A stretch of 64,000 nt of DNA from NCBI RefSeq assembly GCF_000026985.1, contig NC_017390.1:2819889-2883888 (forward strand), read 5' to 3'. The first letter of the stretch is position 1. Every line of letters begins with the position of its first letter. A program made the translations under genes and the position numbers. The notes beneath the pieces are model-generated. The model saw only the letters and a program-made list of their open reading frames with translations. It was not told the origin of the DNA and ran no database searches. Shown one piece after another: positions 1,207 to 39,345 of this stretch. Origin of the DNA: Erwinia pyrifoliae DSM 12163. GTDB taxonomy: Bacteria > Pseudomonadota > Gammaproteobacteria > Enterobacterales > Enterobacteriaceae.

Positions 1207-1530
1207 CTACAAATCCAGCCCCAATCCCTTAGCCGCCGCGCCCACCCTAATCCTACCCGCATCATTACGACCTGGGAAAACGTACTTACCCCGCCCGGTT
1301 AGCTGGTGGGTTGCTTCAAGTAACGATTTAGCCTGGCTGGAAATGGGTACTATGTGGGGGCGGCGCATCTTCATACGTTCGGCGGGGATCTGCCAGATAC
1401 CCTTATCAAAATCGATATCAGGCCATTCAGAGGCGCGGAGTTCGATAGTCCTTAACCCGGTAATCATCAGTAGCCGGGTAGCGTAGCGGGTGATCATGCT
1501 GCCGCTGTAGTTGCTCAGGTCATTAAGGAA
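1207..1530 (-). pseudogene. Remnant of a P4-type tyrosine integrase
   Basis: Read on the minus strand, about 105 codons match the middle of P4-family phage integrases: the start of the catalytic domain with the first active-site arginine in TGLRTIEL, followed by IPAERMKMRRPHIVPIS and YVFPGRND, where the normal protein runs on to the HxxR and Tyr motifs. Those C-terminal motifs are missing: the sequence diverges after GRND and stops at 1207. The N-terminal DNA-binding domains are missing too. An ATG at 1497 lies inside the homologous region, which begins near 1530 ([11 protein letters not shown]), so it is not a true start. The fragment cannot be a working recombinase. Confidence 0.8.
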
Positions 1531-2205: not shown

Positions 2206-2220
2206 CTCATTGATTTTAAT

Positions 2221-2297
2221 TGGTACGCCCTACAGGATTCGAACCTGTGACCTACGGCTTAGAAGGCCGGTGCTCTATCCAACTGAGCTAAGGGCGC
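2221..2297 (-). tRNA. argU: tRNA-Arg (anticodon TCT)
   Basis: The minus strand folds into a 77-nt cloverleaf with encoded CCA: acceptor GCGCCCT, D-arm GCTC/GAGC, anticodon loop CTTCTAA (anticodon TCT, decoding AGA), T-arm ACAGG-TTCGAAT-CCTGT. The position beside folD and an integrase matches argU of E. coli, the attachment site of the DLP12 prophage. Two pairs between the 5' and 3' halves are imperfect: position 1-72 is G-U rather than G-C, and 27-43 is C-U. This fits a 3' half supplied by an integrated element. It is the tRNA for rare AGA codons and is expected to be functional. Confidence 0.95.
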
Positions 2298-2477
2298 ATA
2301 GTGAATGCGTCGGATTATACGGCCAGCATCTGCTGAGTCAACGATTTTACTGCCGCAAGGCATTCAATGCCGAAGTTATGAACAATATCCTGCCAATCTG
2401 TGCCTGACAGCGCGGTCCGCTTCTGACAAAATAGGCGCAATTCCCGATTTACTTAACACAGATGGATCCCCTCTCTG

Positions 2478-3344
2478 ATGGTAGCAAAAATTATTGATGG
2501 TAAAACGATTGCGCAGCAGGTGCGCAATGAAGTTGCCGGGTTAGTTCAGCAGCGTCTGGCTGCCGGAAAGCGAGCGCCAGGTCTGGCCGTAGTGCTGGTT
2601 GGTGAAAACCCGGCTTCACAGATATATGTCGGCAGTAAACGTCGTGCCTGTGAAGAGGTTGGATTCCTTTCGCGCTCGTACGATCTGCCCGCCAGCACCA
2701 GCGAAGCGCAGCTGCTGGATCTGATTAGCGAGCTGAATGATGACGCAGACATTGACGGTATCCTGGTGCAGCTGCCGCTGCCTGCCGGTATCGACAATAC
2801 CAAAGTACTTGAGCATATCTCCCCCGCCAAGGATGTCGACGGCTTCCATCCTTATAATGTAGGCCGCCTGTGCCAGCGCGCACCGACGCTGCGCCCGTGC
2901 ACGCCACGCGGCATCGTTACGCTGCTGGAGCGTTATCAGATTGATACTTTCGGCCTGAACGCCGTGGTGGTGGGTGCCTCCAATATCGTTGGCCGCCCGA
3001 TGAGCATGGAACTATTGCTCGCCGGTTGTACCACCACCGTGACTCATCGCTTCACCAAAAACCTGCGTCAGCACATTGAAAATGCCGATCTGCTGGTGGT
3101 TGCCGTTGGCAAGCCCGGCTTTATTCCCGGCGAATGGATTAAGCCTGGCGCCATCGTGATTGATGTCGGTATCAACCGTCTGGAAAGCGGCAAAGTGGTC
3201 GGCGATGTCGATTTTGACCAGGCCTCAACGCGTGCGGCCTGGATTACCCCAGTACCGGGCGGCGTAGGTCCGATGACCGTTGCCACACTGATCCAGAACA
3301 CCCTGCAAGCCTGTGAAAGCAACGACGATGGAGTATCAGCATAA
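2478..3344 (+). CDS. folD: Bifunctional methylenetetrahydrofolate dehydrogenase / cyclohydrolase FolD
   Basis: Interconverts 5,10-methylene-THF and 10-formyl-THF in the cytoplasm (NADP-dependent dehydrogenase plus cyclohydrolase), supplying formyl groups for purines and initiator tRNA. The 288-residue chain is the usual length. Visible signatures are [13 protein letters not shown] around residues 50-62 with the catalytic lysine, [13 protein letters not shown] at about 121-133, the nucleotide-binding [10 protein letters not shown] at about 167-176, and the C-terminal [12 protein letters not shown]. The start is the ATG at 2478. It overlaps ybcJ by one base (TAATG), forming a folD-ybcJ unit as in E. 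coli. Confidence 0.98.
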
Positions 3345-3556
3345 TGGCAACTTTCTCTCTGGGCGATCATCCTCATGTTGATCTCTGTGACCTGATGAAG
3401 CTGGAAGGCTGGGTAGAAAGCGGCGCAATGGCAAAATCGGTTATCGCTGAAGGCCATGTGACGGTTAACGGCACGGTGGAAACCCGCAAGCGCTGCAAAA
3501 TTGTCGCCGGTCAGAAGGTGGTTTTCGACGGCAACAGCGTGACCGTGACCGCCTGA
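3344..3556 (+). CDS. ybcJ: S4-domain RNA-binding protein YbcJ
   Basis: A 70-residue protein consisting almost entirely of an S4 RNA-binding fold: LCDLMKLEGWVESGAMAKSVIAEGHVTVNG is the helix-turn-strand core, followed by the basic ETRKRCKI segment. Its ATG overlaps the folD stop, so it is translationally coupled to folD. Its E. coli counterpart is known as a small RNA-binding protein of uncertain target. A good intrinsic terminator follows within 25 bp. Confidence 0.93.
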   Translation: MATFSLGDHPHVDLCDLMKLEGWVESGAMAKSVIAEGHVTVNGTVETRKRCKIVAGQKVVFDGNSVTVTA

Positions 3557-3578
3557 TTCAATCTGTCTTTCACGCAGG

Positions 3579-3604
3579 GCTGTCCTTTTGGGCAGCTTTT
3601 TTTA
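3579..3604 (+). terminator. Intrinsic terminator of folD-ybcJ
   Basis: A 7-bp stem GCTGTCC / GGGCAGC with a TTTT loop is followed directly by eight T residues, 22 bp after the ybcJ stop. Confidence 0.9.
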
Positions 3605-3674
3605 TGCCTGCAAGCATACCCAGCGCTTATCTCTTAATCATCTGATTCCGCGTCCCCGTCTATACTGTAGTGGC

Positions 3675-3688
3675 TTGATGTATATCAA
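3675..3688 (+). promoter_or_regulatory. FNR box upstream of adhP
   Basis: TTGAT-GTAT-ATCAA is a perfect match to the FNR consensus TTGATnnnnATCAA, centred about 69 bp before the adhP ATG. Two -10-like elements are possible. TATACT at 3661-3666 would put the box over the start site (repression). TATACA at 3721-3726 would put it near -50 (activation). The sequence does not decide between them. Confidence 0.75.
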
Positions 3689-3750
3689 TATATAGCTGAC
3701 CGCTGGCGCTAAGCTGATGTTATACACCTTATAAACTGAAGAGGTTCACG

Positions 3751-4767
3751 ATGAAAGCTGCTGTCGTCACTCACGATCATCAGGTTGATGTGGTAGAGAA
3801 AACCCTCCGCGCGCTGCAGCATGGCGAAGCCCTGCTCACTATGGAGTGTTGCGGGGTCTGTCACACCGACCTGCACGTCAAAAACGGAGATTTCGGCGAT
3901 AAAACCGGCGTTATCCTTGGGCACGAAGGGATTGGCGTAGTCAAATCTGTCGGTCCGGGCGTGACCTCCCTCAAGCCCGGCGACCGTGCCAGCGTGGCGT
4001 GGTTTTTCAAAGGCTGCGGCCATTGTGAATACTGCAACAGCGGCAATGAAACCCTGTGCCGAGAGGTGATCAACGCCGGTTATACCGCCGATGGCGGCAT
4101 GGCCGAAGAGTGTATCGTGGTGGCGGATTATGCCGTTAAGGTGCCTGACGGTCTCGATCCTGCGGTCGCCAGCAGCATTACCTGCGCCGGTGTCACTACC
4201 TACAAGGCGGTGAAAATCTCCGGTATTTCTCCCGGAAAATGGCTGGTTGTCTATGGCCTTGGCGGTCTGGGCAATCTGGCGCTGCAGTACGCAAAAAATG
4301 TGTTTAATGCCAAAGTCATCGCCGTTGACGTCAGCGATGCCCAGCTGAAATTTGCCGAAGAGATGGGGGCCGATATGGTGATCAACTCGCGTAATGAAGA
4401 CGCGGCACGGCTGATCCAGCAACGCACGGGGGGCGCACATGCTGCCGTGGTAACAGCCGTTGCCAAAGCGGCGTTTAATTCTGCGGTGGATGCGATGCGC
4501 GCAGGTGGCCGTATTGTGGCAGTGGGCCTGCCGCCGGAATCGATGAGCCTGAATATCCCGCGTCTGGTGCTGGACGGCATCCAGGTCGTCGGCTCGCTGG
4601 TCGGCACGCGTGAAGATTTAGCTGAAGCTTTCCAGTTCGCGGCTGAAGGCAAAGTTGTACCCAAAGTCACTCGCCGCCCGCTGCAGGACATCAACGCGAT
4701 CTTCCATGAAATGGAAAGCGGAAAAATCGTTGGCCGCATGGTGATTGATTTTAACAGTACCCATTAA
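3751..4767 (+). CDS. adhP: Zinc-dependent alcohol dehydrogenase AdhP
   Basis: NAD-dependent, zinc-containing medium-chain alcohol dehydrogenase of 338 residues (ethanol/propanol oxidation or acetaldehyde reduction). Catalytic-zinc ligands are visible in CGVCHTDLH (about residues 34-42) and GHEGIG (about 56-61). The structural zinc site is [16 protein letters not shown] (about 89-104) with four cysteines, and the Rossmann motif is GLGGLG at about 170-175. The start ATG at 3751 follows GAAGAGG. The gene stands alone between the folD-ybcJ terminator and a terminator shared with cysS. An FNR box upstream suggests oxygen-dependent control, in keeping with a fermentative enzyme. Confidence 0.95.
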
Positions 4768-4802
4768 CCCTGCGTCGCGCTGCGCAGATTAAGGTCGCAA
4801 TG

Positions 4803-4832
4803 AAAAAAAGCCCTGAAAATTCAGGGCTTTTT
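4803..4832. terminator. Bidirectional terminator between adhP and cysS
   Basis: A 10-bp perfect stem AAGCCCTGAA / TTCAGGGCTT with an AA loop has an A-run on its left and a T-run on its right, so it can stop transcription from both convergent genes. Confidence 0.9.
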
Positions 4833-4848
4833 ATATTCTCACTTCAAC

Positions 4849-6237
4849 TTATTTGCGGCGCCAGCGGGTACCACCGGCACCGTCCTCCAGCACAATGCCC
4901 ATCTCGTTCAGACGGTCACGCGCCACGTCGGCCTGCGCCCAGTTTTTCTCTTTACGCGCATCGATACGCATCTGGATTAGCGCTTCGATCTGCGCCACTT
5001 CTTCATCATTGATATTGACACCGCTTTGCAGGAACTGCTGCGGATCCTGCTCCAGCAGGCCAAGCACGCCGCCCAACACGCGCAGGCGCGCCGCCAGGCC
5101 ATCCGCTGCCGCCGGATCTTCCCCCTTCATGCGGTTGACTTCTCGCGCTAAATCAAACAGCGCCGAATAGGCTTCCGGGGTATTGAAGTCGTCATCCATC
5201 GCCTCGCGAAAGCGCGCCTCAAACTCTTCGCCGCCGGCCGGAGTGGCGCGGGTATCGGTGTTACGCAGCGCAATATACAGGCGCTCCAGCGCCGAACGCG
5301 CCTGGTTGAGGTTATCTTCGCCGTAGTTTAGCTGGCTGCGATAGTGGCCGGACATCAGGAAGTAGCGCACCGTCTCCGCATCGTAGTGCTGCAGCACATC
5401 GCGCACGGTAAAGAAGTTGTTCAGCGATTTCGACATTTTTTCACGGTCAATCATCACCATGCCGGAGTGCATCCAGTAGTTCACATACGGGCCATCATGA
5501 GCACAGGTGGACTGGGCGATCTCATTCTCGTGGTGTGGGAACATCAGGTCAGAACCGCCGCCGTGAATATCGAAGTGCTCACTCAGCTGTTTGCAGTTCA
5601 TTGCCGAACACTCAATATGCCAGCCCGGACGGCCGTTGCCCCACGGGGAAGCCCAGCCAGGTTCATCTGCTTTGGACATCTTCCACAGCACAAAGTCCAT
5701 CGGGTTACGCTTCACATCGGCAGCCACCTCAACGCGAGCGCCGGCCTGAAGCTGATCCAGATCCTGACGCGACAACGAACCGTATTGCGGATCGCTGTCA
5801 ACGGAGAACATCACATCGCCATTGCTGGCAACATAAGCATGCTCACGGGTAATCAGCTTCTCGACCAGTTCGATAATCTCTGCAATATGGCGCGTGGCGC
5901 GTGGCTCCAGATCCGGCGGCAGAATGTTCAGCGCGGCGAAGTCTTTATGCATTTCGTCGATCATGCGATTGGTCAACCGCTCGATAGATTCGCCGTTTTC
6001 GTTCGCGCGTTTGATGATTTTGTCATCTATATCGGTGATGTTACGCACATATTTCAGCTGATAACCACTGTAACGCAGATAACGCGCCACAACATCAAAA
6101 GCGGCAAAGGTTCTGCCGTGGCCGATATGACACAGGTCGTAAACGGTAATGCCACACACGTACATGCCGATGTTACCGGCATGTATGGGTTTAAATTCCT
6201 CTTTTTGACGACTCAGGGTGTTGTAAATCTTTAGCAT
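4849..6237 (-). CDS. cysS: Cysteinyl-tRNA synthetase
   Basis: Charges tRNA-Cys with cysteine; essential, cytoplasmic. The 462-residue length fits the family. The class I signature is GHIGHGRTF at about residues 36-44, and KMSKS lies at about 266-270 ([11 protein letters not shown]). Zinc-binding residues are visible as C28 ([10 protein letters not shown]), C209 (WHIECSAM) and the HHENE segment. The start ATG at 6237 is the family's N-terminus ([10 protein letters not shown]). It is divergent from ppiB across 239 bp and convergent with adhP. Confidence 0.98.
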
Positions 6238-6476
6238 TGAGACATTCCGTTTTAAGCGTGTGCGGGGTTAACGATAATTTAGTGTGTATAATATTCTGAC
6301 GTATTTTTCCGTGCAGCGCTACGCAAAGCAAAGTTATCCCCCAGCCCCGCTTTGCAGCGTTGCTGACGAGCCGTCACAATTTGTGGTATAAAAGCCGTCT
6401 GCCGCCAGGGGCAGATTATTTGTCTGCACTTCCTGCGCCCACTGTTAAATACTTCAAACCCTGACAGGATGAGAAA
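6238..6476. promoter_or_regulatory. Divergent cysS / ppiB promoter region
   Basis: Non-coding spacer between divergent genes. A TATAAA at 6387-6392 is a plausible -10 for ppiB. An AT-rich TATAATAT stretch at 6287-6294 could serve cysS on the opposite strand. No clear -35 elements or operators are recognisable. Confidence 0.4.
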
Positions 6477-6971
6477 ATGGTTACTTTCCAGACTAATCAT
6501 GGCGATATCGTCATCAAAACTTTTGATGATAAAGCCCCGGCTACCGTAAAAAACTTCCTTGAGTACTGCCGCGAAGGCTTTTACGACAACACCATCTTTC
6601 ACCGTGTGATCAACGGTTTTATGATCCAGGGCGGTGGTTTTGAGCCAGGCATGAAGCAGAAAGACACCAAAGACGAGATCCGTAACGAAGCCAGCAACGG
6701 CCTGAAAAATACCAAAGGCACCCTGGCAATGGCGCGCACTCAGGCTCCACACTCTGCCACTGCCCAGTTCTTTATCAACGTGGCAGACAACGACTTCCTG
6801 AACTTCCGTGACGAAAGCCTGCAGGGCTGGGGCTACTGCGTGTTCGCTGAAGTGGTTGAAGGAATGGACGTGGTTGAGAAAATCAAAGCCGTCTCTACCG
6901 GCCGCAGCGGCATGCACCAGGATGTGCCGAAAGATGACGTGATCATTCAGAAAGTGACCGTCAGCGAATAA
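6477..6971 (+). CDS. ppiB: Peptidyl-prolyl cis-trans isomerase B (cyclophilin)
   Basis: Cytoplasmic cyclophilin that catalyses proline isomerisation during folding. It has 164 residues, the E. coli PpiB length. Core cyclophilin motifs are [14 protein letters not shown] (residues about 41-54, with the catalytic Arg), [23 protein letters not shown] (about 82-104) and [16 protein letters not shown]. There is no signal peptide, distinguishing it from periplasmic PpiA. The start ATG at 6477 has AGGATG-AGAAA upstream. It overlaps lpxH by one base (TAATG), as in E. coli. Confidence 0.97.
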
Positions 6972-7687
6972 TGCCGCACACGCTGTTTATCGCAGATCTC
7001 CATCTGTGTCGTGAAGAACCGGCAATCACTGCCGGTTTTCTGCAATTTTTGCACCATCAAGCACAGCACGCTGATGCGCTGTATATTCTTGGTGACCTGT
7101 TTGAAGCCTGGATTGGTGACGACGATCCCAATCCGCTGCACGCGCAGATCGCCCACGCGCTGCGTCAGCTCAGCATCCCCTGCTACTTTATTCACGGTAA
7201 TCGCGACTTTCTGTTGGGCAAGCGCTTTGCCCGCTCGGCCGCAATGACGCTGCTGCCGGAAGAACAGGTGCTGGAACTGTACGGCAAGCGCCTGCTTGTC
7301 ATGCACGGCGACACGCTGTGCACTGACGATAGCGGTTACCAACGGTTTCGTCAGAAGGTGCAGCAGCGCTGGCTGCAAAAGCTGTTCCTCGCCCTGCCGC
7401 TGTTGATACGCCAGCGTATCGCGTTAAAAATGCGTGACGGTAGCAAACAGGCTAACAGCAGTAAGGATATGGCGATTATGGACGTTAATCAGCAGGCGGT
7501 GATCAAAACAATGTGTCGCCACAATACCCCGCTGTTAATCCACGGCCATACGCATCGTCCGGCGGTACACCCGCTTGAAATCAACGGCCAGCCGGCGCAG
7601 CGTCTGGTATTGGGAGCCTGGCACCAGCAAGGCTCCATGATCCGGGTCAGCAGTGACGAGATCAGGCTGATTTCCTTCCCGTTCTGA
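6971..7687 (+). CDS. lpxH: UDP-2,3-diacylglucosamine pyrophosphatase LpxH
   Basis: Hydrolyses UDP-2,3-diacylglucosamine to lipid X in lipid A synthesis, at the inner face of the cytoplasmic membrane. It has 238 residues with the metallophosphoesterase metal ligands in order: DLHLC (D8, H10), [11 protein letters not shown] (D41), GNRDFLLG (N79), MHGDTLC (H114) and IHGHTHRP near residues 192-199. It is translationally coupled to ppiB through overlapping stop and start. The next gene, purE, has its own regulated promoter. Confidence 0.97.
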
Positions 7688-7712
7688 AGCGTAACTGGCG
7701 CGGTTTCGCGCT

Positions 7713-7750
7713 ACGCAACCGTTTTCCTTGCCGCACAGTCATGATATTCT
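7713..7750 (+). promoter_or_regulatory. PurR operator and promoter of purEK
   Basis: ACGCAACCGTTTTCCT at 7713-7728 is a good match to the PurR operator consensus (ACGCAAACGTTTGCGT) and to the site known before E. coli purE. It overlaps the expected -35 region of a promoter whose -10 is TATTCT at 7745-7750. Repression by PurR with hypoxanthine or guanine is expected. Confidence 0.85.
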
Positions 7751-7825
7751 CTCTGCCCTTCCCACCCGGTAGCCAGTCTCTGCGCTGCCACGGTGACGTT
7801 TTACAATCACAGGAGTCAGACCCGC

Positions 7826-8335
7826 ATGTCATCCAACGCCGCACCGGCCCGCATTGCTATTGTTATGGGTTCAAAAAGTGACTGGGCCACCATGCAATTT
7901 GCTGCGGAAGTCCTCACCAGTCTGGACATTCCGTTTCACTGTGAAGTGGTGTCCGCCCACCGCACGCCAGACAAGCTGTTCAGCTTTGCCGAAAGTGCCA
8001 CGGATAACGGGTATCAGGTGATTATTGCCGGGGCAGGCGGCGCGGCGCATCTGCCGGGTATGCTGGCAGCGAAAACGCGGGTGCCGGTACTCGGCGTGCC
8101 GGTACAGAGCGCCGCGCTAAGCGGGGTAGACAGCCTGTATTCCATCGTCCAAATGCCGCGCGGCATTCCGGTAGGCACGCTGGCGATTGGTAAAGCCGGG
8201 GCAGCCAACGCCGCCCTGCTGGCGGCGCAGATCCTCGCGCTGCACGACAGCGGCCTGGCGCTGCGCCTGGCGGACTGGCGACAGGCGCAGACTGACGAGG
8301 TGCTGAACCATCCGGACCCCCGGGAGGAAGCATGA
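7826..8335 (+). CDS. purE: N5-carboxyaminoimidazole ribonucleotide mutase PurE
   Basis: Converts N5-CAIR to CAIR in purine biosynthesis. The chosen start, ATG 7826 ([19 protein letters not shown]), gives 169 residues, the E. coli length, with AGGAG at 7811-7815 as ribosome site; upstream in-frame codons do not match the family. Signatures are VMGSKSDW (about 13-20), SAHRTPD (about 43-49), [11 protein letters not shown] (about 71-81) and GVPVQS. It overlaps purK (ATGA), forming the purEK operon. Confidence 0.97.
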
Positions 8336-9399
8336 AACCGGTCTGCATTTTAGGTAACGGTCAGCTCGGGCGCATGCTGCGCCAGGCCGGGGAGCCGCTG
8401 GGGATCGCCGTTTATCCGGTCGGCCTTGACGCCGAGCCGCAGACGCTGCCGATGGCGCAAAGCGTCATCACCGCCGAAATCGAGCGCTGGCCGGAAACCG
8501 CGTTGACGCGCGAGCTTGCCGATCATCGCGCCTTTGTTAATCGCGATATTTTCCCGCTGCTGGCGGATCGCCTGACGCAGAAACAGCTGCTTGACCGGCT
8601 TGGCCTGGCAACGGCACCCTGGCAGCTCTTATCCGCTGCCGACCAGTGGGCGCAGGTGTTCACTACCCTCGGCGAACTGGCAATCGTTAAACGCCGTACC
8701 GGCGGCTACGACGGGCGTGGCCAGTGGCGTCTGCGCGCCAGCGAAACCGCTACGCTGCCCGGCGAATGCTACGGCGAATGTATCGTCGAACGGGGCATCA
8801 ACTTCTCGGGTGAAATGTCGCTGGTGGGCGCGCGCGGCCACGACGGCAGCACGGTGTTCTACCCGCTGACCCATAACCTGCATCAGGACGGCATACTGCG
8901 TACCAGCGTGATGCTGCCAGACGTCGATGCGCAGCACCAGCAGCAGGCGGAACGCATGCTGTCGGCGATTATGCATGAGCTGAACTACGTTGGCGTGATG
9001 GCGATGGAGTGCTTCGTGGTGCCGGAAGGTCTGCTGATCAATGAGCTGGCTCCGAGGGTGCATAACAGTGGTCACTGGACGCAGAACGGCGCGTCCATCA
9101 GCCAGTTTGAACTGCATCTGCGCGCCATTCTCGATCTGCCGCTGCCCACCCCGGTGGTCAATACCCCGGCAGTGATGGTCAACCTGATCGGCACCGACAT
9201 CAATACCGCGTGGCTCAGGGAGCCGCTGGTGCATTTGCATTGGTACGACAAAGAGGTGCGCGCCGGGCGTAAGGTCGGCCACCTGAATCTGGCAGACGCC
9301 AGCCCGCTGGCACTTGGCACCGCGCTCAATGCGCTGGTGCCAATGCTGCCTGCGGAATATGCCAGCGGTATTGCCTGGGCCGTGGATAAACTTGCTTAA
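8332..9399 (+). CDS. purK: N5-carboxyaminoimidazole ribonucleotide synthase PurK
   Basis: ATP-grasp enzyme making N5-CAIR from AIR, ATP and bicarbonate, supplying PurE. The 355-residue length is normal. It has the N-terminal Rossmann-like [11 protein letters not shown] (4-14), ATP-grasp [13 protein letters not shown] (about 121-133), and the metal-binding [14 protein letters not shown] block near 236-249. The start overlaps the purE stop. Nothing unusual is seen. Confidence 0.97.
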
Positions 9400-9461
9400 G
9401 CCAGCAATACGGCGGGCTGAAAGTGATAAGTTCAGGCCCGCCGCTTCACATCGCCCCGCCG

Positions 9462-11891
9462 TCAGCCCGCCTCATATCCCCGGAACAGCGCCCTGCCCTT
9501 CAGCAGACGCAAGCCCAGCCAGCCGCCGCACAGCGATAGCAGCAGCGCACCGGTTAACGGCAGCGCCAGCCACAGCATAAAGTCCGGCTGCCAAGGGAAG
9601 TCAAACACCTTGCGCTGTAATCCCCACAGCGCCACTTCAGCCCCGATGGTCGCCGCCGCGCCCGATACCACGCCAAGCAGTGCAAACTCGCACCACAGCG
9701 TGGCACGCAGCAACTTCTTGCTGGCACCCAGCGTACGGTACACCACCAGCTCCTGCCGCCGCTGGCGCATCCCGACCTGGATTTGTGCCAGCAACAGCAG
9801 CACGCCGCAGACAGTCACCAGTACCACCATGATCTCCAGCGCCTGACTCACCTGCGCCAGCACCTGGCCTATCTGACGCAAAATCGTGCCGATATCCAGC
9901 AGGCTTAAGGTCGGAAACTGGCGGTTAAGCTGCGCCAGCAGCGCGTTATCGTCATTGACGCGGAAGCTGGTCAGCCAGGTCTGCGGCTGGTTATCGAGCG
10001 CGCCAGGCGGGAAAATAATGAAGAAGTTTGGCCTGAGGCTCTCCCAGTCCACCCTACGCAGACTGCTAATTTTAGCGCTGAACTGCTGGGTATCTCCGGT
10101 AAAAGTCAGACTATCACCCAGTTTTACCCCCAGCCGCTCGGCCAGCCCCTGCTCGATCGAGACTTCCCCTTTTTGCGGCGGCCAGCTGCCTGCGGTCAGC
10201 GGATTGTGCTGCGGCAACGCTTTAAGCCAGGTCAGATTCAATTCACGGTTGAGTGATTCATCCTGTGCCGGATCTGCCGGCTGCTGATTAATAGCGGTCA
10301 GGCGCGCACGCACCACCGGATAGAAGGTTTCCGGCTGCACCTGATGCTGTTGCAGGAATGACGTCACCTGCGGCACCTGCCGTGCGGTGATATTTAGCAG
10401 GAAGTAGTTCGGGCTGTCCGGCGGCAGCTGCTGCTGCCACCTGTCCAGCAAATCGCCGCGCATCACCAGCAGCAGCGCCAGCAGCATAAACGACAGCGAA
10501 AATGCCGCCAGCTGGCTAAGGGTGGTCCACGGCTGGCGCAGCAGGCGGTTGACCGCCAGGCGAAATGCCAGGTTGCGCAGCGTCAGACGCCGCAGCAGCA
10601 ACAGTCCGCCCCAGCCGATTGCCCCCAGCAGCAACGACAGCAGCACAATGCCAGCCACCAGCGCCCACAGCAGCTTGCTTCCTCCCACCAGCAGCGCCAG
10701 CAGGCCGATCACCACCAGCAGCATGGCCGGCAGATAAAACTTCAGCGGCCAGATATTCACCACCGCGTCACGGCGCAATACGCGCAGCGGCTGAGTGGCC
10801 AGCAGCAGGCGATACGGCCGCAGCCCGACCAGCAGTGAAATCGTCAATAAGGATCCCAGCGCCCACAGCCACGGCCAGCCGCTGGCGGCCGGTAGTTCCC
10901 CCGGCAAAACCGGGCGCAGCAGGGACAACAGCAAGGTTTCAAAACCCAGGCCAATGGCGCTACCGACCAGCCCTGCCAGCAGAAGCACCGCCAGCCACTG
11001 GCCAACGATCAGCTTTTGCAAGGCGCGGCGATTCGCGCCAAGCGTTTTCAACACCGCCACCAGATCGTATCGGCTGCGGCAATAGTGGTTCATCGCCACC
11101 GTCACGGCGGCAATCGCCAGCATCAGCGTCAGCAGGGCCGACAGCAGCAGGAACTGCTGGGCGCGCTGCATCGATTTACCCAGCGCGTCCCCGGAGTTTT
11201 CGACGCTGATCCAGCGTTGTTCCGGGGTAAGGCGTGATTCAATGTAGCTGTCATATCGTGCCAGCTGCGCCGGGCTGCCGGAGAATTTATAGCGCCAGGT
11301 CACCCGGCTTCCGGGCTGGACAGCGCCGGTTTTTTCCACATCGGCCAGGTTCATCAGCAGGCGCGGCGCGGTCTGGAACGGGTTAAAGCCCGCATCCGGC
11401 TCCTGAATCACTGCTCCGCTGATACGCAGCGTGGTATCACCCACTTCGAGGTTTTCCCCGGCTTTACGGTCGATCAGTTCAAGCAGGCGCGGCGCGGCCA
11501 GCACCGCGCCCGCTGCCGGTTTTAGCCCGGCTGGGGCGGTGGTCAGCTGGCCGTACATCGGGTAGAGACTGTCCACCGCCTTCACCGAGGCCAGCTGCGG
11601 CGTATCACCGGCAAAAGTCATGGTCATAAACGTTAGCTGCCGTCCGATTTGCAGCCCTTCGGCTCGCGCCTGTTCCAGCCATTGCGGCTGCACCTCGTGT
11701 GCGCTGCTTAAGGTGCGGTCACCGGCCATAAAGTCACGGCTTTGCTGCGTCAGCCCTTTTTCCATGCGGTCGCTGAGCGAGCCGAGCGCCAGCACGCAGG
11801 CCACCGCCAGCGTCAGCGCCAGCCAGACGATCAGCAGCGAGGGGGATTTCCACTCGCGCCAGAACCAGCGCCAGATCATGCTTCCTCCCAC
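9462..11891 (-). CDS. ybbP: ABC transporter permease YbbP (FtsX-like)
   Basis: An 809-residue MacB/FtsX-type permease with an N-terminal membrane segment (LLIVWLALTLAVACVLALG), a large periplasmic domain, a central cluster of membrane helices around 260-500, a second periplasmic domain and three C-terminal helices ending LLLSLCGGWLGLRLL. It pairs with the ATPase YbbA, whose gene overlaps its start by 16 bp. Substrate is unknown; the E. coli pair lies next to the thioesterase tesA, and a role in moving lipophilic or acyl compounds across the envelope is an inference only. E. coli YbbP is of similar length. Confidence 0.93.
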   Translation of the reverse strand: MGGSMIWRWFWREWKSPSLLIVWLALTLAVACVLALGSLSDRMEKGLTQQSRDFMAGDRTLSSAHEVQPQWLEQARAEGLQIGRQLTFMTMTFAGDTPQLASVKAVDSLYPMYGQLTTAPAGLKPAAGAVLAAPRLLELIDRKAGENLEVGDTTLRISGAVIQEPDAGFNPFQTAPRLLMNLADVEKTGAVQPGSRVTWRYKFSGSPAQLARYDSYIESRLTPEQRWISVENSGDALGKSMQRAQQFLLLSALLTLMLAIAAVTVAMNHYCRSRYDLVAVLKTLGANRRALQKLIVGQWLAVLLLAGLVGSAIGLGFETLLLSLLRPVLPGELPAASGWPWLWALGSLLTISLLVGLRPYRLLLATQPLRVLRRDAVVNIWPLKFYLPAMLLVVIGLLALLVGGSKLLWALVAGIVLLSLLLGAIGWGGLLLLRRLTLRNLAFRLAVNRLLRQPWTTLSQLAAFSLSFMLLALLLVMRGDLLDRWQQQLPPDSPNYFLLNITARQVPQVTSFLQQHQVQPETFYPVVRARLTAINQQPADPAQDESLNRELNLTWLKALPQHNPLTAGSWPPQKGEVSIEQGLAERLGVKLGDSLTFTGDTQQFSAKISSLRRVDWESLRPNFFIIFPPGALDNQPQTWLTSFRVNDDNALLAQLNRQFPTLSLLDIGTILRQIGQVLAQVSQALEIMVVLVTVCGVLLLLAQIQVGMRQRRQELVVYRTLGASKKLLRATLWCEFALLGVVSGAAATIGAEVALWGLQRKVFDFPWQPDFMLWLALPLTGALLLSLCGGWLGLRLLKGRALFRGYEAG

Positions 11892-12562
11892 AGCTTGCCG
11901 TCACGCAGACGCAAACGCCGGTCACAGCGTGCGGCCAGCTGTTCATCATGGGTAACGAGGATCAGGGTGGTGGCGTGATCGCGGTTCATGCTGAACAGCA
12001 GATCGACGATACGATCGCCGGTTTTGCGGTCCAGATTGCCGGTGGGCTCATCGGCAAACAGCAGCGCCGGGCGGCCGTTAAAGGCGCGGGCCAGCGCCAC
12101 GCGCTGCTGTTCACCGCCGGAAAGCTGGGCGGGCAGATGGCCGAGGCGCTCGCCCAGCCCAAGCTGGCCCAGCAGCGCAGCCGCCTGTTCACGACTCTGC
12201 CTGTCGCTCTCACCGCGCAGCAACGCCGGGAGCTGCACGTTCTCCTGGGCGTTGAGCGTTGGCACCAGCATAAACGACTGGAAGACGAAGCCGACATTCT
12301 GCGCCCGCAGCTCTGCGCGCTGCTCCTCATTCATCTGATGCAGCGGCTGGCCGAGCATCATCACTTCTCCCGCACTGCCGTCATCCAGTCCGGCCAGAAT
12401 CCCCAGCAGGGTTGACTTGCCCGATCCCGACTCGCCGATCAGGGCAAGGGTTTCAGCCGGTTTGACAACCAGCTCAACTCCGGTAAGGATAGATAGCTGA
12501 TGCTCCCCCTGACCGACGGACTTACTAAGATGATGAACTTCAAGAATGTTTTCCGCTGGCAT
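11876..12562 (-). CDS. ybbA: ABC transporter ATP-binding protein YbbA
   Basis: LolD/MacB-type ATPase of 228 residues: Walker [10 protein letters not shown] (about 43-51), Q-loop VFQSFML, signature LSGGEQQR (about 146-153), Walker [10 protein letters not shown] and the switch His in VTHDEQL. The start [12 protein letters not shown] matches the E. coli protein exactly at the N-terminus. Its 5' end overlaps the 5' end of the divergent tesA gene by about 33 bp, an arrangement also found in E. coli. It energises the YbbP permease. Confidence 0.95.
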
Positions 12563-13183
12563 TACCCGTTCCTGTTTTTAGTGGCTTTTATGACGCTGCG
12601 TGCGGCGGCGGCAGATACGCTGCTGGTGCTGGGCGACAGCCTGAGCGCCGGTTACCGCATGTCCGCCAGTGCCGCATGGCCCGCGTTACTCAATGAGAAA
12701 TGGCAAAAATCCCCTGCTATCATTAACGGTAGCATAAGCGGCGATACTACGGCACAGGGACTGGCCCGACTTCCGGCGCTGCTGAAACAACATCAGCCGC
12801 GCTGGGTACTGATTGAGCTGGGGGGTAACGATGGGTTGCGTGGTTTCCCTCCGCAGCAGGTCGAGCAGGATTTGAATCAGGCCATTGCTCAAATCCAGGC
12901 GGCAAAGGCGCAGCCGCTGCTGATGCAGGTGCGGCTACCGGCCAACTACGGCAAGCGCTACACCGATTCATTTGCCGCCATCTATCCCAGACTGGCCAGT
13001 CAGCATGCGATCCCGCTGGTGCCGTTCTTTATGGAACAGGTCTACCTGAAGCCGGAATGGATGCAGGATGACGGCATTCACCCTAATCCGGTGGCCCAGC
13101 CTTTTATTGCCGATTTGATGGCAAAACAGCTGGCTTTCTTAGTTAAGCATCAGGCATCGGATAGCGTGGGGAATGATGGGTAA
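12530..13183 (+). CDS. tesA: Multifunctional acyl-CoA thioesterase I / protease I / lysophospholipase L1
   Basis: Periplasmic GDSL-family esterase of about 217 residues. The signal peptide [28 protein letters not shown] is followed by GDSLSAGY with the nucleophile serine, SGDTTAQG and GGNDGLRG (oxyanion-hole residues), and DGIHPN with the catalytic Asp and His. Start ATG 12530 (or 12533) is chosen from the E. coli N-terminus; an earlier in-frame start at 12500 lies deep in ybbA and would spoil the signal peptide. The first 33 bp overlap the divergent ybbA. Confidence 0.95.
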   Translation: MMNFKNVFRWHYPFLFLVAFMTLRAAAADTLLVLGDSLSAGYRMSASAAWPALLNEKWQKSPAIINGSISGDTTAQGLARLPALLKQHQPRWVLIELGGNDGLRGFPPQQVEQDLNQAIAQIQAAKAQPLLMQVRLPANYGKRYTDSFAAIYPRLASQHAIPLVPFFMEQVYLKPEWMQDDGIHPNPVAQPFIADLMAKQLAFLVKHQASDSVGNDG

Positions 13184-31109: not shown

Positions 31110-34020
<2,911 letters not shown>

Positions 34021-34072
34021 CTCAACTCCGCAAGACGTAATCCGCAGATTACGCCACGATTTTCGTGCAACC

Positions 34073-34855
<783 letters not shown>

Positions 34856-34979
34856 TCAGTTGATTCAGGCTGTTCGCTACCAGTACATTCCCCGGAACCT
34901 GTGCCAGACTAGTGAATTTTGACTGGACTTAAAAATGATATAAACAGACACTTAATGTGAGTTTTTCTAACAAGGTACT

Positions 34980-35858
34980 ATGATGTCTAACCTTCCTTCA
35001 CTGCGCGCGTTACACTATTTCCATCAGGCTGCATTGCGACAAAGTTTTAGCCGGGCGGCACAATCGCTGAACGTAACGCACAGTGCCGTTAGTCATCAAA
35101 TCAAACAGTTAGAAGAGTGGCTGGGAAAACCTTTATTCCTGCGGATTAAGGGGCGAGTGCAATTAACGGCCGACGGTGAGCGCCTTAAAGCCTGCTGTAT
35201 GCAAAGCTTTCGCAGCATTGAAGTGACCTGTGACAAAATTCGCGCGTGCGACCTTCATAGCCTGACAATATCGTGCGCCCCAAGTTTTCTGGCGCAATGG
35301 CTTATCCCGCGTATCAACCGCTTCACGTCACGCCATAGCGAAATCGCCCTGACTTTCCAGACCCACGTTGATCTGGAGCGGGTGCGTAGTGAGCATACCG
35401 ATATACTGATCGTCAGCCAGCAGCAGCCCGTACAGAAGGACATTGCCGCCACGCTGATTACCGTCGACTATATTGGCCCGGTATGTTCCCCAGCGTTCAG
35501 TAGCCGCTTTAGCTACGAGACCGATTTTTCTACCTTACCGCTGCTGCATGCCGATACCAAACTCAATGCCTGGTCCGAATGGGCAAAAAAAACCGGAGCG
35601 CGCGGTGATTTTTGGGCTGGAAATCATTTCGACAATCTCACTCTGGCGATTCAGGCGGCGCGTAACGGCATGGGGATTATTATGACGCCGCAGATCCTGG
35701 TGAAAAAAGAGATCTTCGACGGTTCACTGATTGCACCACTGGGTTTTGCCGAGGTAGATCGCGCTACCTGGATGATGATAAAAGCGTCACGTAAAGCAGA
35801 TAAGGGGATTAAATTATTTCGCAGCTGGCTATTAGATGAAGCTTCGATGGTGGGGTAA
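34980..35858 (+). CDS. ycfR: LysR-family regulator (GcvA type), probable regulator of the 6-thioguanine operon
   Basis: A 292-residue LysR protein of the GcvA subgroup: LPSLRALHYFHQAALRQSFSRAAQSLNVTHSAVSHQIKQLEEWLG is the DNA-binding domain, followed by RIKGRVQLTADGE. It is divergent from ycfA with about 200 bp between, so the shared intergenic region probably holds its binding site; I could not fix one by eye. A LysR-type regulator of 6-thioguanine synthesis has been described in E. amylovora as YcfR, hence the symbol. ATG 34980 and 34983 are equivalent starts. Its 3' end faces the ATPase cassette across a long hairpin. Confidence 0.75.
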   Translation: MMSNLPSLRALHYFHQAALRQSFSRAAQSLNVTHSAVSHQIKQLEEWLGKPLFLRIKGRVQLTADGERLKACCMQSFRSIEVTCDKIRACDLHSLTISCAPSFLAQWLIPRINRFTSRHSEIALTFQTHVDLERVRSEHTDILIVSQQQPVQKDIAATLITVDYIGPVCSPAFSSRFSYETDFSTLPLLHADTKLNAWSEWAKKTGARGDFWAGNHFDNLTLAIQAARNGMGIIMTPQILVKKEIFDGSLIAPLGFAEVDRATWMMIKASRKADKGIKLFRSWLLDEASMVG

Positions 35859-35880
35859 CAAGGGCAGCGCACAAAACTGT

Positions 35881-35932
35881 CAACGACATCAGGGATATTT
35901 TACGGCCAAATGAATATCCGCAGATGTCGTTG
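35881..35932. repeat. Long imperfect hairpin between ycfR and the ATPase cassette
   Basis: Outer arms CAACGACATC (35881-35890) and GATGTCGTTG (35923-35932) are perfectly complementary. Inner arms GGATATT (35893-35899) and AATATCC (35913-35919) are too, with 2-3 nt bulges and a 13-nt loop. It lies between convergent genes and may act as a terminator for either, though no T-run follows on either strand. Confidence 0.7.
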
Positions 35933-35972
35933 CAACAGGCACGTCGAACTGAATGAACTGGCCCGACGGAAA

Positions 35973-37484
35973 TTACTGTTTATTGGGTTTTACCCCGCCC
36001 TTGCGCCCTAAACCAAAACCGACTCGGTAAAGATCGGGCATATCGATACGCTCATCGGCACGTTCTTCAAAAACACCGATACGCAACAGGTCCTGCTTAA
36101 TACCCGGCCAGCCTTTTTCCACATGCTGTGGCGGAAGCCGGTTATTACCCGCATCCTGTGGCCCATTGGGGAAAGCATCATGCCATCTTTGTAAGACGTA
36201 GGAAAAATCAACAGGTACCGTTAAGCCCCCCAGCGGATCAAAAAATACCCTGACCCAGGGATAGTCTTCCGCCAGCTCGCCCACACGAATTCCTGAAGCC
36301 TCCTGAACTCCGCGCTTGACGCTTTCATAATGCAAAGGATAGGGATGGTCCTGATATTTGTCGCGGGAATCCTCGGCTGCCTGACGAATTGCGGCGAGAA
36401 ACGAGCGTGGTGAGGTGCGGCCATTGCCATCAGCAAGATGACTTACTGCCCAAATATAGGGCACGCCACGGCGCCTGTCTTTTCCCATCCACGGGCCAGC
36501 CAGCGCTGAAAATAACGCTCTTTGTGCTTCGGTCTCGCGCTTGATTTCGTCATGTGGTAAATAAAGACCATTGGCTTCAATGACACTTTTGCCAACAGAA
36601 TGTTGATATAAGCCCCGTAAAACATCGCCAGCATTACCTTTAGCATTCAACAGGTACTGCCACAGCAAACCGTGCAGGTCGTTAAGCGCCCATGAAAGCT
36701 CTGCTTTTGTCGCCAGCAATTTCGATGCATCAGGAAAATCAGTCACCGTCCTCTCCAGCTGATCTTCGCGTAAGAACACCTTAGCCGACAGGCGCGGATA
36801 AGGTTTCAGCCATAACACGACGCGCAGTAAGTCCCGTACCATGCTATCCATCAATGACCAGTCGGTACTGAGGCGATCCAGTGCGTCAAAGAGAATTAAA
36901 AAATGCTGGTTTTTTACCACCGCCTGCTGACTGGCATCAGCCATAAACTGCGCAACACGCTCGGGGTTCTGCTCAATCCAGCTGACTTTTTCCTGCCACG
37001 TTTTCTTATCGTTAAATAAGTTATGTTGCAATAATTTTGCAATACCTAAGACAACGATCGTGCGCCAGATAACATAAGGCGTGAAACGGGACGACAGTTG
37101 CTTAAAAGTATCCGCATCAGGATAGTCCTGATTATTGGGCCGCTCGGAAAAACCGATATGAATTTCCGCAGAATCCAGTTCAGGTATATTTGAGCCGATA
37201 ACCTTACGCAACTGAGGATCGGCCAAGGCAGCGGTCCATACCGATTTACCCACTCCACGGCTGCCAACCACCAGCACGCATTCTGGCCGCAGCGCCTTTA
37301 AATGCGCCGGAGGGACATATAAATTCTCCAGTGCAGGCGCGGAACCGCTGTAGGAGGTATCGGCGGGCAAAGCCTCATATATTGCGCGACGAATGCTATC
37401 TGCTTTACACCTCTTCTGATGTCTCCACGATATTGATCGCCTGACTGGTCCCGTCGATAAGCTCGCCGAAGACAAGGGAAACAT
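35973..37484 (-). CDS. P-loop ATPase of the KGGVGR cassette (STAND/AAA-like), function unknown
   Basis: Up to 503 residues. Walker A is GSRGVGKS (residues 74-81 counted from ATG 37484) and Walker B is FLILFDALDRL (about 195-204), the D-x-x-DR form seen in NTPases of the STAND/Sll1717 kind. A long C-terminal half follows without recognisable motifs and with no membrane helices. The start is unclear: ATG 37484 lies 80 bp inside the upstream ATPase gene, the region resembling the family begins near ADSIRRAIYEALPAD, and there only ATT (37394) or TTG (37370) are available. It is translated with the ParA-like gene; together they probably form a two-ATPase complex, which is inference. Confidence 0.75.
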   Translation of the reverse strand: MFPLSSASLSTGPVRRSISWRHQKRCKADSIRRAIYEALPADTSYSGSAPALENLYVPPAHLKALRPECVLVVGSRGVGKSVWTAALADPQLRKVIGSNIPELDSAEIHIGFSERPNNQDYPDADTFKQLSSRFTPYVIWRTIVVLGIAKLLQHNLFNDKKTWQEKVSWIEQNPERVAQFMADASQQAVVKNQHFLILFDALDRLSTDWSLMDSMVRDLLRVVLWLKPYPRLSAKVFLREDQLERTVTDFPDASKLLATKAELSWALNDLHGLLWQYLLNAKGNAGDVLRGLYQHSVGKSVIEANGLYLPHDEIKRETEAQRALFSALAGPWMGKDRRRGVPYIWAVSHLADGNGRTSPRSFLAAIRQAAEDSRDKYQDHPYPLHYESVKRGVQEASGIRVGELAEDYPWVRVFFDPLGGLTVPVDFSYVLQRWHDAFPNGPQDAGNNRLPPQHVEKGWPGIKQDLLRIGVFEERADERIDMPDLYRVGFGLGRKGGVKPNKQ

Positions 37485-38709
37485 TCCTGGCGTCGACTAC
37501 GGTTAAACGAGAATGCAGGGAGGTTATTGCTGAAAAACCCAGATTCCAGCGTATTACCCATGGATAATGCGGGGCAAGAACATCGCTCATGGCAAAATTA
37601 AAGCGATCTTTAAGATCGCCGGGCTGTATTTCATCGTATAGCGGATTAAACAGATTCCAGGCGCGTTCGCGCATACCGGAAAAATAAGCTTCGCGGCGCT
37701 CATCGTCCGGTACCATTGCGCCAACAATCTGTAAACGCTCGCGTATTTCGGTGGCTTTACCTAAACGTTGCCAATACTCGAACAATACACGATAGCCAGA
37801 CCATGTCTGTTCTCCATCTACCGTAAATAATAAGATGAGACTTGCACCTAAATCGCTCACGCAGCTTGCTGCTATTTCATCAATGCCGGAACGGGAATCA
37901 ATAAAGATAACATCCGGTTTTATCTTTTCTTCCAGATCGGATATCAACCGGTTTAGCCGTTGCGACCAGCTTTCACGCTGGCCATGGTTACCCACTTTCG
38001 GCATCCAGACACGACCCAGCTTGGCGATATATTCGCCGGGATCTTTACCGTGAGCAGGGACGACGTAAATTTCACCGTCATGAGAGAGAGAGCTGGTTGC
38101 CAGCATGTTATCGACAATACGGCTGCCATTATCCACCAGGTCTTCGACCATCCAGTCAACAATGCCACTGGCTGGGCGTTTTTCCTCCGGCAGTAGGGAG
38201 GTTGACAGGCCAGGAGACTCAAGATCGAGGTCAAGCACCAGCACTTTTTTGCCTTCCTGAGCCAGCGCCCAGGCAGAGGCCGCCATCGCCGTGGATCGCC
38301 CCACGCCGCCTTTTATAGAGAAAAAGACAATGCGCCTGGCACCGTGGGTGACAGGTTTTATCAGATCCCAACGGCCTTCCGTGGGCAGACGGTCGACAAC
38401 CCAAACATTATCCGTGCCTGATAGTAAAAAGTGCGGGGCATTCTGGCAGACCGCTGCCACATCCGGCTCATAGAGAACCGCAGCCTTAGCAGGAAAGGAA
38501 TGTGGGGAGAGCCGTTGTTCCATCTGCTGTGCAATCTGATTAATGAGATCAAACTGCTGCGGATTTTCGCGCGCAGTCTCGGGCGCAATTAAACGAACTT
38601 TACCATTCAGGTCACGATTGACGGCGATGGGGCCAATCTCTGAGACAGCCTGAGCATGGGGGGCAAAAATGCTCTCCAGGCCAGTTAAAATTTGATCAAA
38701 GATAATCAT
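37405..38709 (-). CDS. ParA/MinD-like ATPase with variant Walker A (KGGVGR)
   Basis: A 434-residue protein. An N-terminal domain of about 120 residues, unrecognised, precedes a ParA/MinD-type ATPase core: FFSIKGGVGRSTAMAASAWALA (Walker A 133-140), VLVLDLDLESPGLS (switch I Asp) and DVIFIDSRSGIDEIA (Walker B region). The signature lysine K133 is kept, but the second, nucleotide-binding lysine is Arg, as in the annotated KGGVGR-variant group. Its ATG overlaps the stop of the upstream small gene (ATGA), and its end overlaps the downstream ATPase gene. This is not chromosome-partitioning context: there is no ParB. A defence or stress-response role is possible but unproven. Confidence 0.85.
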   Translation of the reverse strand: MIIFDQILTGLESIFAPHAQAVSEIGPIAVNRDLNGKVRLIAPETARENPQQFDLINQIAQQMEQRLSPHSFPAKAAVLYEPDVAAVCQNAPHFLLSGTDNVWVVDRLPTEGRWDLIKPVTHGARRIVFFSIKGGVGRSTAMAASAWALAQEGKKVLVLDLDLESPGLSTSLLPEEKRPASGIVDWMVEDLVDNGSRIVDNMLATSSLSHDGEIYVVPAHGKDPGEYIAKLGRVWMPKVGNHGQRESWSQRLNRLISDLEEKIKPDVIFIDSRSGIDEIAASCVSDLGASLILLFTVDGEQTWSGYRVLFEYWQRLGKATEIRERLQIVGAMVPDDERREAYFSGMRERAWNLFNPLYDEIQPGDLKDRFNFAMSDVLAPHYPWVIRWNLGFSAITSLHSRLTVVDARNVSLVFGELIDGTSQAINIVETSEEV

Positions 38710-39128
38710 ATTGGTATCGCACCGTCGAGTTGAGCCTGTTTGAGGATATCTTTCGCCATCTTAGCGCCCTTTCTGTGATTCTCCGCTACCTGCTGGCTAA
38801 ACGCCGATTGATGATCGTAACGCTGAGATGCCCGCCAGTCATCGAATGGATTCACCGGGTCTAATGCGTAAGCCCCTGCGGGATGACAGTTCCCCTGGTA
38901 GGTTTGATAACGCTGCCAGATGCGGTCAATATGCTTTTGGTCATCACGCTCTTGAGGCATATTTCTTACAGTATTGAAGGGAATGCCAAAGGCTAACATC
39001 AGGTATTTCAACGCACTTTCTGCCGAGAAACCATAAAGATGATCGGCATTGGCCCAGCGCCCTCTACTGAATAATAGTTCGGCATCATCCTAATGCCGCT
39101 GGCAAGAATCTGCAAAATCACAGCTCAT
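38706..39128 (-). pseudogene. Small first gene of the KGGVGR cassette, interrupted by an amber codon
   Basis: A frame of 140 codons runs from ATG 39128 (MSCDFADSCQRH) to a TGA at 38706-38708, broken by TAG at 39090-39092, codon 13. After the stop the frame continues with DDAELLFSRGRWANADHLYGFSAESALK, which looks like the intact body of a known family that accompanies KGGVGR ATPases and should start a few residues earlier; a Trp (TGG) to TAG change would explain it. The HLYGFSAESALK helix is reminiscent of HEPN-type helices, without a clear RNase motif. A restart at TTG 39011 would give only 101 residues and lose this block. Automatic callers would report just that piece. Confidence 0.75.
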
Positions 39129-39284
39129 CTTTAGACACTCATTTAACAGAATTTACACGCATAAACGGTTCTTACTCTGCAGGCAATTGATTTTACCTAC
39201 AAAAGCGGTATGCAAATTGACGTGATGATATTAAACAGGAAGACGGGGAGAGTGCAAAGCAGGAATAAAGGAAAAATGGATTAA

Positions 39285-39317
39285 TGACTCACCGGGAGAA
39301 TTTCTGCCGGTGAGTCA
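39285..39317 (-). terminator. Hairpin downstream of htpG
   Basis: An 11-bp perfect stem TGACTCACCGG / CCGGTGAGTCA with an 11-nt loop starts 29 bp after the htpG stop. On the minus strand it is followed by TTAATCCATTTTT, an interrupted T-run. Confidence 0.75.
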
Positions 39318-39345
39318 ACAGCTCTGTTACAGAATACTGTGCGGA

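What the first reader, a model, noticed from the sequence alone, without database searches (positions are those of the whole stretch)
35973..39128. Uncharacterised three-gene cassette: small protein, KGGVGR ParA-like ATPase, P-loop ATPase
Three overlapping, co-directional genes were inserted as a block between adk and htpG, beside another acquired cluster. The ParA-like protein keeps the signature Lys but has Arg for the second Walker A Lys (KGGVGRS). The partner has a D-x-x-DR Walker B like STAND NTPases, and the first gene has a HEPN-like helix. There is no ParB or partition site. This is the layout of a sensor-effector or defence module, but I know of no described function.
Basis: partly seen in the sequence, partly recalled or inferred. 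Interest (0 to 1): 0.75.

Follow-up and report, generated by a model that had tools for sequence, protein, structure and literature searches.

The report
Disarmed HEPN phage-alarm cassette
This three-gene cassette is likely a mobile anti-phage alarm, in which a protein with a predicted RNA-cutting fold would be released by two ATPases; relatives of it sit inside BREX-type and restriction operons of other bacteria, but in this genome its first gene is cut short by a stop codon.

Summary
The three genes are real: A 38706-39011 (shortened), B 37405-38709, C 35973-37484, all on the minus strand. They match PADLOC's candidate system PDC-M28A/B/C; my searches found no paper on it. In 84 related loci the order A-B-C is nearly constant. 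A relative of A folds, by prediction, as a HEPN domain. B is a ParA/MinD-type ATPase with Arg for the P-loop Lys in all motifs read. C is predicted to be an ORC/STAND-like AAA+ ATPase.

The strongest evidence for defence is nesting. A-B-C lies inside BREX type 2 operons (3 plasmids), between methylase and helicase of DUF499 BREX-related operons (11 of 84 loci, plus one more), and between hsdS and hsdM of one type I R-M operon. C is also fused to metallophosphatase-NACHT proteins, and B to C. This is the PrrC layout built from other parts. Most copies, however, stand alone.

In this genome (Erwinia pyrifoliae by its plasmid) A has an in-frame stop, and the nearest relative keeps only a scar. 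No phage test exists; defence is inferred.

The parts
38706..39011 (-). gene A remnant: 101-aa ORF from an internal TTG, the C-terminal part of a HEPN-fold protein of about 138-140 aa (PDC-M28A)
   Evidence: (PDLC04558, E 4.2e-25, profile positions 40-137 of 138)
39012..39128 (-). 5' part of gene A from its likely original ATG (39126-39128), interrupted by an in-frame stop at 39090-39092
   Evidence: translation shows the stop; intact relatives
37405..38709 (-). gene B: N-terminal domain of about 120 aa of unknown fold, then a KGGVGR ParA/MinD-type ATPase (PDC-M28B, NF047398)
   Evidence: (E 4.9e-175)
35973..37484 (-). gene C: ORC/STAND-like AAA+ ATPase by predicted fold (PDC-M28C); the profile match begins at residue 27, so the start may lie downstream of the ATG at 37484
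   Evidence: (E 2.2e-201)
35865..39344 (.). stretch present here; relatives G009, G011, G017 and G034 have only 86-105 bases in its place between the LysR-side and htpG-side flanks

Best explanation
The cassette is a mobile A-B-C module, likely anti-phage, in which A, predicted to be a HEPN-fold protein and likely an RNase effector, would be held in check by B (a KGGVGR ParA-type ATPase) and C (a predicted ORC/STAND-like AAA+ ATPase) until infection, or the disabling of a partner restriction system, releases it; in this genome A is interrupted by a stop codon. Shown by calls: the gene order, the motifs, the family matches, the nesting in other defence operons, the B-C fusions and the broken A. 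Predicted: the folds of A and C. Inferred: the RNase activity, the release by B and C, the trigger and the phage protection. By layout it works like PrrC, a HEPN RNase governed by an NTPase and encoded inside a restriction operon, but with different NTPases in separate proteins. In this species the system is probably disarmed.
Against: No experiment. The canonical HEPN motif Rx4-6H is absent at its usual place (R103 followed by H at +5 to +7 in 11 of 104; a similar string at R24 in helix 2 occurs in 75 of 99, but its H is often Q or Y), so A may not be an RNase. A's best VIA Z, 12.7, lies under the tool's caution line of about 13 for helical bundles, and Foldseek alone gives no E under 0.001. 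In the 20-locus phylum sample, 180 of 182 neighbour proteins picked gave few PADLOC matches (PtuA, ATPase_I-A, PDC-S47, PDC-M26A, PDC-S14, and mad2/mad3/mad8 and RtcR-type ones; only 25 of 44 families are listed for one half; no control set), and none of these 20 loci matched the BREX or BREX-related parts searched. No relative in 50,697 phage records. Nested copies are a minority, so dependence on a host system is not general.
Confidence: 0.6

Rival explanations
1. A toxin-antitoxin pair at heart: A is a HEPN toxin, B its ParA/Soj-type antitoxin, with C added; the module keeps itself and its plasmid, and defence is secondary. The 2013 HEPN survey proposed just this for another HEPN family (MAE_18760) beside a ParA/Soj ATPase.
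For: A-B overlap; plasmids, with an integrase or tyrosine recombinase as nearest annotated gene upstream of the A position in H2, H3, H4, H9 and H12 (in H9 the A position was not matched by the A profile); HEPN-ParA dyad proposal in PMC3710099 (passages). A is the gene broken here while B and C stay open.
Against: C is about as constant as B, a simple pair needs no AAA+ sensor, and pure addiction does not explain nesting in three kinds of methylation-based defence operon.
Confidence: 0.2
2. An accessory subunit set of the modification system itself: in nested loci A-B-C helps the methylase, helicase or BrxC-type ATPase to read or restrict DNA, and A only binds nucleic acid or nucleotide.
For: Nesting next to methylase genes; Foldseek's first hits for C are BrxC (9zll, E 4.6e-7, but TM-score 0.33); non-canonical HEPN residues; some HEPN domains lacking the motif are thought to bind RNA only (PMC3710099 abstract).
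Against: Most copies show no such host: 71 of 84 loci without BREX-related parts, some of them on short contigs, and 0 of 20 in the phylum sample. The present genome has no DUF499 or DUF1156 methylase match.
Confidence: 0.15
3. A partition or positioning module of a mobile element, as the ParA-like gene suggests.
For: B matches ParA/MinD families over its P-loop; plasmid carriage.
Against: Arg in place of the catalytic P-loop Lys in all 44 motifs and nine; no ParB gene annotated next to the module in the plasmid loci viewed (PLSDB's gene table is incomplete); L200 carries separate ParB and AAA genes about 2 kb away; frequent chromosomal and defence-operon settings.
Confidence: 0.03

Closest known systems
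PADLOC candidate PDC-M28 (A, B, C)
   Same: All three genes and their order; strong profile matches; the two BREX-nested copies tested match it too.
   Different: PADLOC lists it only as a candidate; a full-text search for PDC-M28 found no paper, and the PADLOC server paper does not hold the word PDC.
PrrC within the PrrI type Ic R-M locus
   Same: A HEPN protein governed by an NTPase and encoded inside a restriction-modification operon (L222), probably as a second line of defence (PMC3710099 passages).
   Different: PrrC is one protein with an ABC ATPase; here HEPN, a SIMIBI-type ATPase and an ORC/STAND-like AAA+ ATPase are three proteins, and the hosts include BREX-2 and DUF499 systems.
HEPN (MAE_18760 family) + ParA/Soj gene pair
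   Same: HEPN gene next to a ParA/Soj-type ATPase, proposed as a toxin-antitoxin pair (PMC3710099 passages).
   Different: A's only widely recurring Pfam match is HEPN_AbiV, weak, B is the KGGVGR variant, and a third gene C is fixed. MAE_18760 itself was not compared here.
AbiV (Lactococcus abortive infection)
   Different: The one score shown is below Pfam's cut-off (18.1 against 27.1 bits); no partner genes are given for AbiV in that paper's table passage.
BREX type 2 and DUF499 BREX-related (BR) type 2 / Hma systems
   Same: A-B-C nests inside their operons; Foldseek's first hits for C are BrxC, at TM-score 0.33.
   Different: A-B-C has no methylase, helicase or PglZ of its own. The BREX survey PMC12839542 (passages and part 1 of 2 of section 35) lists HEPN backup effectors; its main text does not hold the words ParA, SIMIBI, MinD, KAP or AbiV.
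DS-8 (metallophosphatase + NACHT, phage-tested)
   Same: C is naturally fused to a metallophosphatase-NACHT protein in 5 loci.
   Different: DS-8 is one protein, described without A, B or C (PMC13092281 passages); sequence kinship of the two was not compared.

Membership tests
PDC-M28 (PADLOC candidate) | three adjacent genes matching M28A, M28B and M28C | tested here: met
   E 4.2e-25, 4.9e-175, 2.2e-201; A over profile positions 40-137 only because it is truncated
HEPN superfamily | HEPN helical fold | tested here: met
HEPN superfamily | canonical RNase motif Rx4-6H between helices 3 and 4 | tested here: not met
   R103 present in all 104 sequences with a residue there, but H at +5 to +7 in 11 of 104
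AbiV/AF0298-type HEPN | R kept, H of the motif lost, alternative conserved H before the motif | tested here: met
   H66 in 66 of 69 core sequences and 28 of 39 further rows (5 gaps); E37 in 69 of 69; description from PMC3710099
AbiV | HEPN_AbiV profile above Pfam's cut-off | tested here: inconclusive
   26 of 69 match, best E 5e-4; only member 1's score is shown, 18.1 bits against a cut-off of 27.1
ParA partition ATPase | deviant Walker A with both lysines (KGGxxK[ST]) | tested here: not met
   R138 invariant in 30 of 30; R in all 44 motifs and all 9
ParA partition ATPase | adjacent ParB gene | tested here: not met
   none annotated next to the module in 19 plasmid loci (the gene table is incomplete); in L200 a separate ParB/AAA pair lies about 2 kb away
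ParA partition ATPase | parS-type centromere | not tested
   no site search was made
STAND NTPase | Walker A and D-x-x-D-R type Walker B | tested here: met
   G77, G79, K80, D200 and D203 invariant in 61 sequences; R204 in 90% or more
STAND NTPase | STAND fold as against ORC/Cdc6 | tested here: inconclusive
BREX / BREX-related system | own methylase, helicase, BrxC/DUF499 ATPase or PglZ | tested here: not met
   none of the three genes matched such a family; they occur as an insert in such operons
PrrC | HEPN domain fused to an ABC ATPase | tested here: not met
   separate proteins, no ABC ATPase family among the matches listed
PrrC | encoded within a type I R-M operon | tested here: met
   L222 hsdR-hsdS-A-B-C-hsdM; met in this locus only, not in the window
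toxin-antitoxin / abortive infection | A toxic alone and neutralised by B or C; phage protection | not testable with these tools
   needs expression and phage assays

The most novel reading that the evidence does not exclude
A-B-C is a portable guard, a three-protein counterpart of PrrC, that plugs into methylation-based defence operons of three kinds (BREX-2, DUF499 BREX-related, type I R-M). C, for which Foldseek's first hit is BrxC itself, serves as a decoy for the large ATPases that phages attack; when a phage disables the host system, C and the slow KGGVGR switch B release the HEPN protein A, which shuts the cell down.
Probability: 0.2. Interest if true: 0.8.

Novelty: new variant of a known kind. 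Interest (0 to 1): 0.6.

Why it matters
It would give the widely distributed 'KGGVGR-motif variant ATPase' family, so far named only by its motif, a place in immunity, and would show that HEPN backup effectors controlled by paired ATPases are slotted into BREX and restriction operons as ready-made modules. A recent BREX survey lists standalone HEPN genes among backup effectors; this identifies one such module with a fixed three-gene make-up that can be tested with and without its host system. The Erwinia copy looks like a natural case of such an alarm being switched off in one species and deleted in its sister.

Tried and rejected
Partition module: rejected (Arg for the P-loop Lys, no ParB annotated next to it). 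Core metabolic gene set: rejected (patchy distribution). General defence-island enrichment: a PADLOC scan of 180 neighbour proteins from 20 loci of the phylum sample gave few matches (of 182 proteins picked I left out two long frames that overlap C); I made no random-neighbourhood control, so I claim no enrichment. PDB sequence profiles for A and C found nothing convincing. The Uma2 match in B's N-terminus was dropped: 1 of 30 members. BrxC, first in Foldseek for C, is not among the 50 rows listed by VIA. Megablast of the region against E. coli genomes and tblastn of B against phages found nothing. The 84 loci were collected with DNA patterns for SIKGGVGRS/SIKGGVGR and DLESPGLS, so the Arg is partly built into that set; the plasmid, phylum and class loci were not chosen by the motif. 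The tree is FastTree on 117 rows, three pairs of them the same contig under two ids, with long branches; it needs 9 label changes for BREX-related nesting (7 forced by well-supported branches; shuffled mean 12.5, 1 of 500 shuffles as low), which may be gains or losses. BREX-2 nesting needs 2.
Full report
What is in the window. Three minus-strand frames at 35973-39128 match PADLOC's candidate system PDC-M28: C (35973-37484, E 2.2e-201), B (37405-38709, E 4.9e-175) and A (38706-39011, E 4.2e-25, profile positions 40-137 of 138 only). B also passes NCBIfam NF047398, 'KGGVGR-motif variant AAA ATPase' (200.4 bits, cut-off 90); C is below the cut-off of the Sll1717 P-loop family (59.4 against 75). 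A full-text search for PDC-M28 found no paper, and the only paper with the string KGGVGR is, by its title, about mushroom lectins.

Gene A is broken. From the ATG at 39126-39128 the frame meets a stop at 39090-39092. The remaining 101-aa ORF starts in the second helix and lacks ten of the sixteen columns that are invariant in the alignment of intact relatives. The protein database holds this 101-aa form (3 member sequences, 7 contigs; 100% identity) and one 140-aa relative at 77% identity. Intact copies exist elsewhere: 71 of 80 A ORFs could be given a start before the conserved motif.

History. None of 35 same-genus relatives has a full-length B (best E 9.5e-9, P-loop only), and of 394 genomes drawn from the order only the own one has C at E <= 1e-40. 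Between the flanks, relatives G009, G011, G017 and G034 have 105, 87, 94 and 86 unaligned bases. In G005 it is 2,029 bases with transposase-like frames (the transposase reading is by eye). In the nearest relative, G016 (htpG 99% identical), the left flank runs to window position 35888 and then continues at 39066, so about 60 bases of the start of gene A are retained. I read this as a deletion scar; the stop codon of the window is not in that remnant. The neighbouring cluster (31848-35858) aligns in five of six relatives and in part in G009, so it is older than the cassette.

The module elsewhere. An alignment of 30 B proteins found 80 loci in named genomes (the best 80 of 171) and 4 in viral contigs. 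With the window's proteins as queries, B is found in 84 of 84, A in 80 and C in 78, in the order A-B-C on one strand; the six loci without C end 9-1142 bases after B. A profile found A in two of the four loci without it, L107 and L108. Some relatives are degraded too (split or partial B or C in L042, L063 and L090; an A-B remnant in L218). 72 of 80 A ORFs end in ATGA, the overlap with B. Hosts span Pseudomonadota, Chlorobiota, Chloroflexota, Thermodesulfobacteriota, Myxococcota, Nitrospirota, Verrucomicrobiota, Synergistota and Campylobacterota, many of them metagenome bins. Of 398 genomes drawn from the phylum 19 have C at E <= 1e-40, and of 369 from the class 8, own genome included; none of 14 control genomes has.

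Nesting in defence operons. (a) BREX type 2 on plasmids, by the annotation in PLSDB: in Thiodictyon two pglX genes, small genes, A-B-C, a 'phage resistance protein' and pglZ (that protein is 68% identical over 813 residues to the DUF6079 protein of the next case); in Sphaerotilus pglX-A-B-C-DUF6079-pglZ; in Streptomyces pglW-A-B-C-pglX. A, B and C are confirmed there by profile. These are 3 of 19 plasmid loci viewed, of 21 found (H7 and H17 not viewed). (b) DUF499 BREX-related type 2: PADLOC names DUF499, DUF3780, DUF1156 methylase and PLD helicase in L043, with DarG there and DarT in L040 as further passengers. Such parts flank 13 of 84 loci; in 11 (L029, L040, L043, L045, L053, L056, L059, L061, L070, L095, L098) methylase lies upstream of A and helicase downstream of C, while L048 and L080 keep only remnants. 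(c) Type I R-M: L222 reads hsdR-hsdS-A-B-C-hsdM, the host genes named by Pfam and A-B-C by profile; L100 has type I-like parts starting 85 bases after C, and L082 and L199 have an hsdR-like gene nearby. (d) None of the 20 phylum-sample loci matched the BREX and BREX-related parts searched, and 180 of their neighbour proteins gave few PADLOC matches, so most copies stand alone.

Fusions. B and C are one frame in L151 (930 aa), L199 (892 aa) and L200 (929 aa). In L143, L145, L153, L154 and L144 (four genomes, two loci in one of them) C runs on without a stop into a tail that Pfam reads as metallophosphatase and NACHT in the four tested; the fifth, L144, is 57% identical to the L143 tail. In L154 neither A nor B was found. 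DS-8, a metallophosphatase-NACHT protein, protects E. coli from phage and needs both domains (PMC13092281, passages).

How it most likely works. The 2013 survey describes PrrC: a HEPN RNase with an ABC ATPase, encoded among hsdMSR genes, kept inactive by the R-M enzyme and released when phage T4 inhibits that enzyme (PMC3710099, passages). The present module has the same ingredients in other forms: a HEPN protein, two NTPases and, in part of its copies, a place in modification-based operons. I infer that C senses, B times and A acts. The RNase step, the trigger and the protection are untested; stand-alone copies suggest that the module can also act alone. In the window's genome A is truncated, so the module is probably silent, although B and C are open.

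Where it stands. PADLOC already lists the three genes as a candidate, so the cassette is not new as a set. New here, as far as the searches named go (seen as listings), are the HEPN fold of A, the ORC/BrxC-like fold of C, the nesting in three kinds of defence operon, the fusions and the decay in Erwinia. The BREX survey PMC12839542 was read in passages and in part 1 of 2 of its section 35; its supplements were not open to me and may list some of these loci.

Noticed in passing
window 31848-34822 and 34980-35858: A permease (EamA-like by eye), DUF6024 protein, NUDIX protein, PP-loop-like protein (by eye) and LysR regulator next to the cassette. It resembles the Erwinia 6-thioguanine gene cluster (recalled, from no call); it aligns in five of six relatives and only in part in G009.
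   Followed up: partly
L207 (own genome C3:3076000-3094000), about 519-12761: The same genome carries a BREX-like operon about 220 kb away: PglZ matches PF08665 (E 5.4e-76), with frames of 1214, 1283, 867 and 694 aa in a row, which looks like type 1 by order and size. It is not nested with A-B-C.
   Followed up: partly
L092:8268-11430 (-): Pseudomonas lopnurensis has a second, divergent A-B-C on the opposite strand about 1.5 kb from the first.
   Followed up: no
L040, L043, L053, L061: DarT/DarG sit inside the same DUF499 operons, so these operons collect several effectors.
   Followed up: partly
L198, L202, L203, L204: A separate KGGVGR group on plasmids: a 613-624-aa B-like protein, no C found; in three of the four the gene just upstream is annotated as an MqsA-family antitoxin.
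   Followed up: no
L190 (relative G005), between LysR gene and htpG: A 2,029-base insert with transposase-like frames (by eye) at the same site as the cassette, so this junction may be prone to insertion.
   Followed up: partly
L105, L106 (viral contigs): A-B-C in full length on two near-identical viral contigs, possibly prophages.
   Followed up: no
L217:2372-3712: A Schlafen/AlbA_2 protein lies just upstream of the DUF499-type methylase in the operon that holds A-B-C.
   Followed up: no
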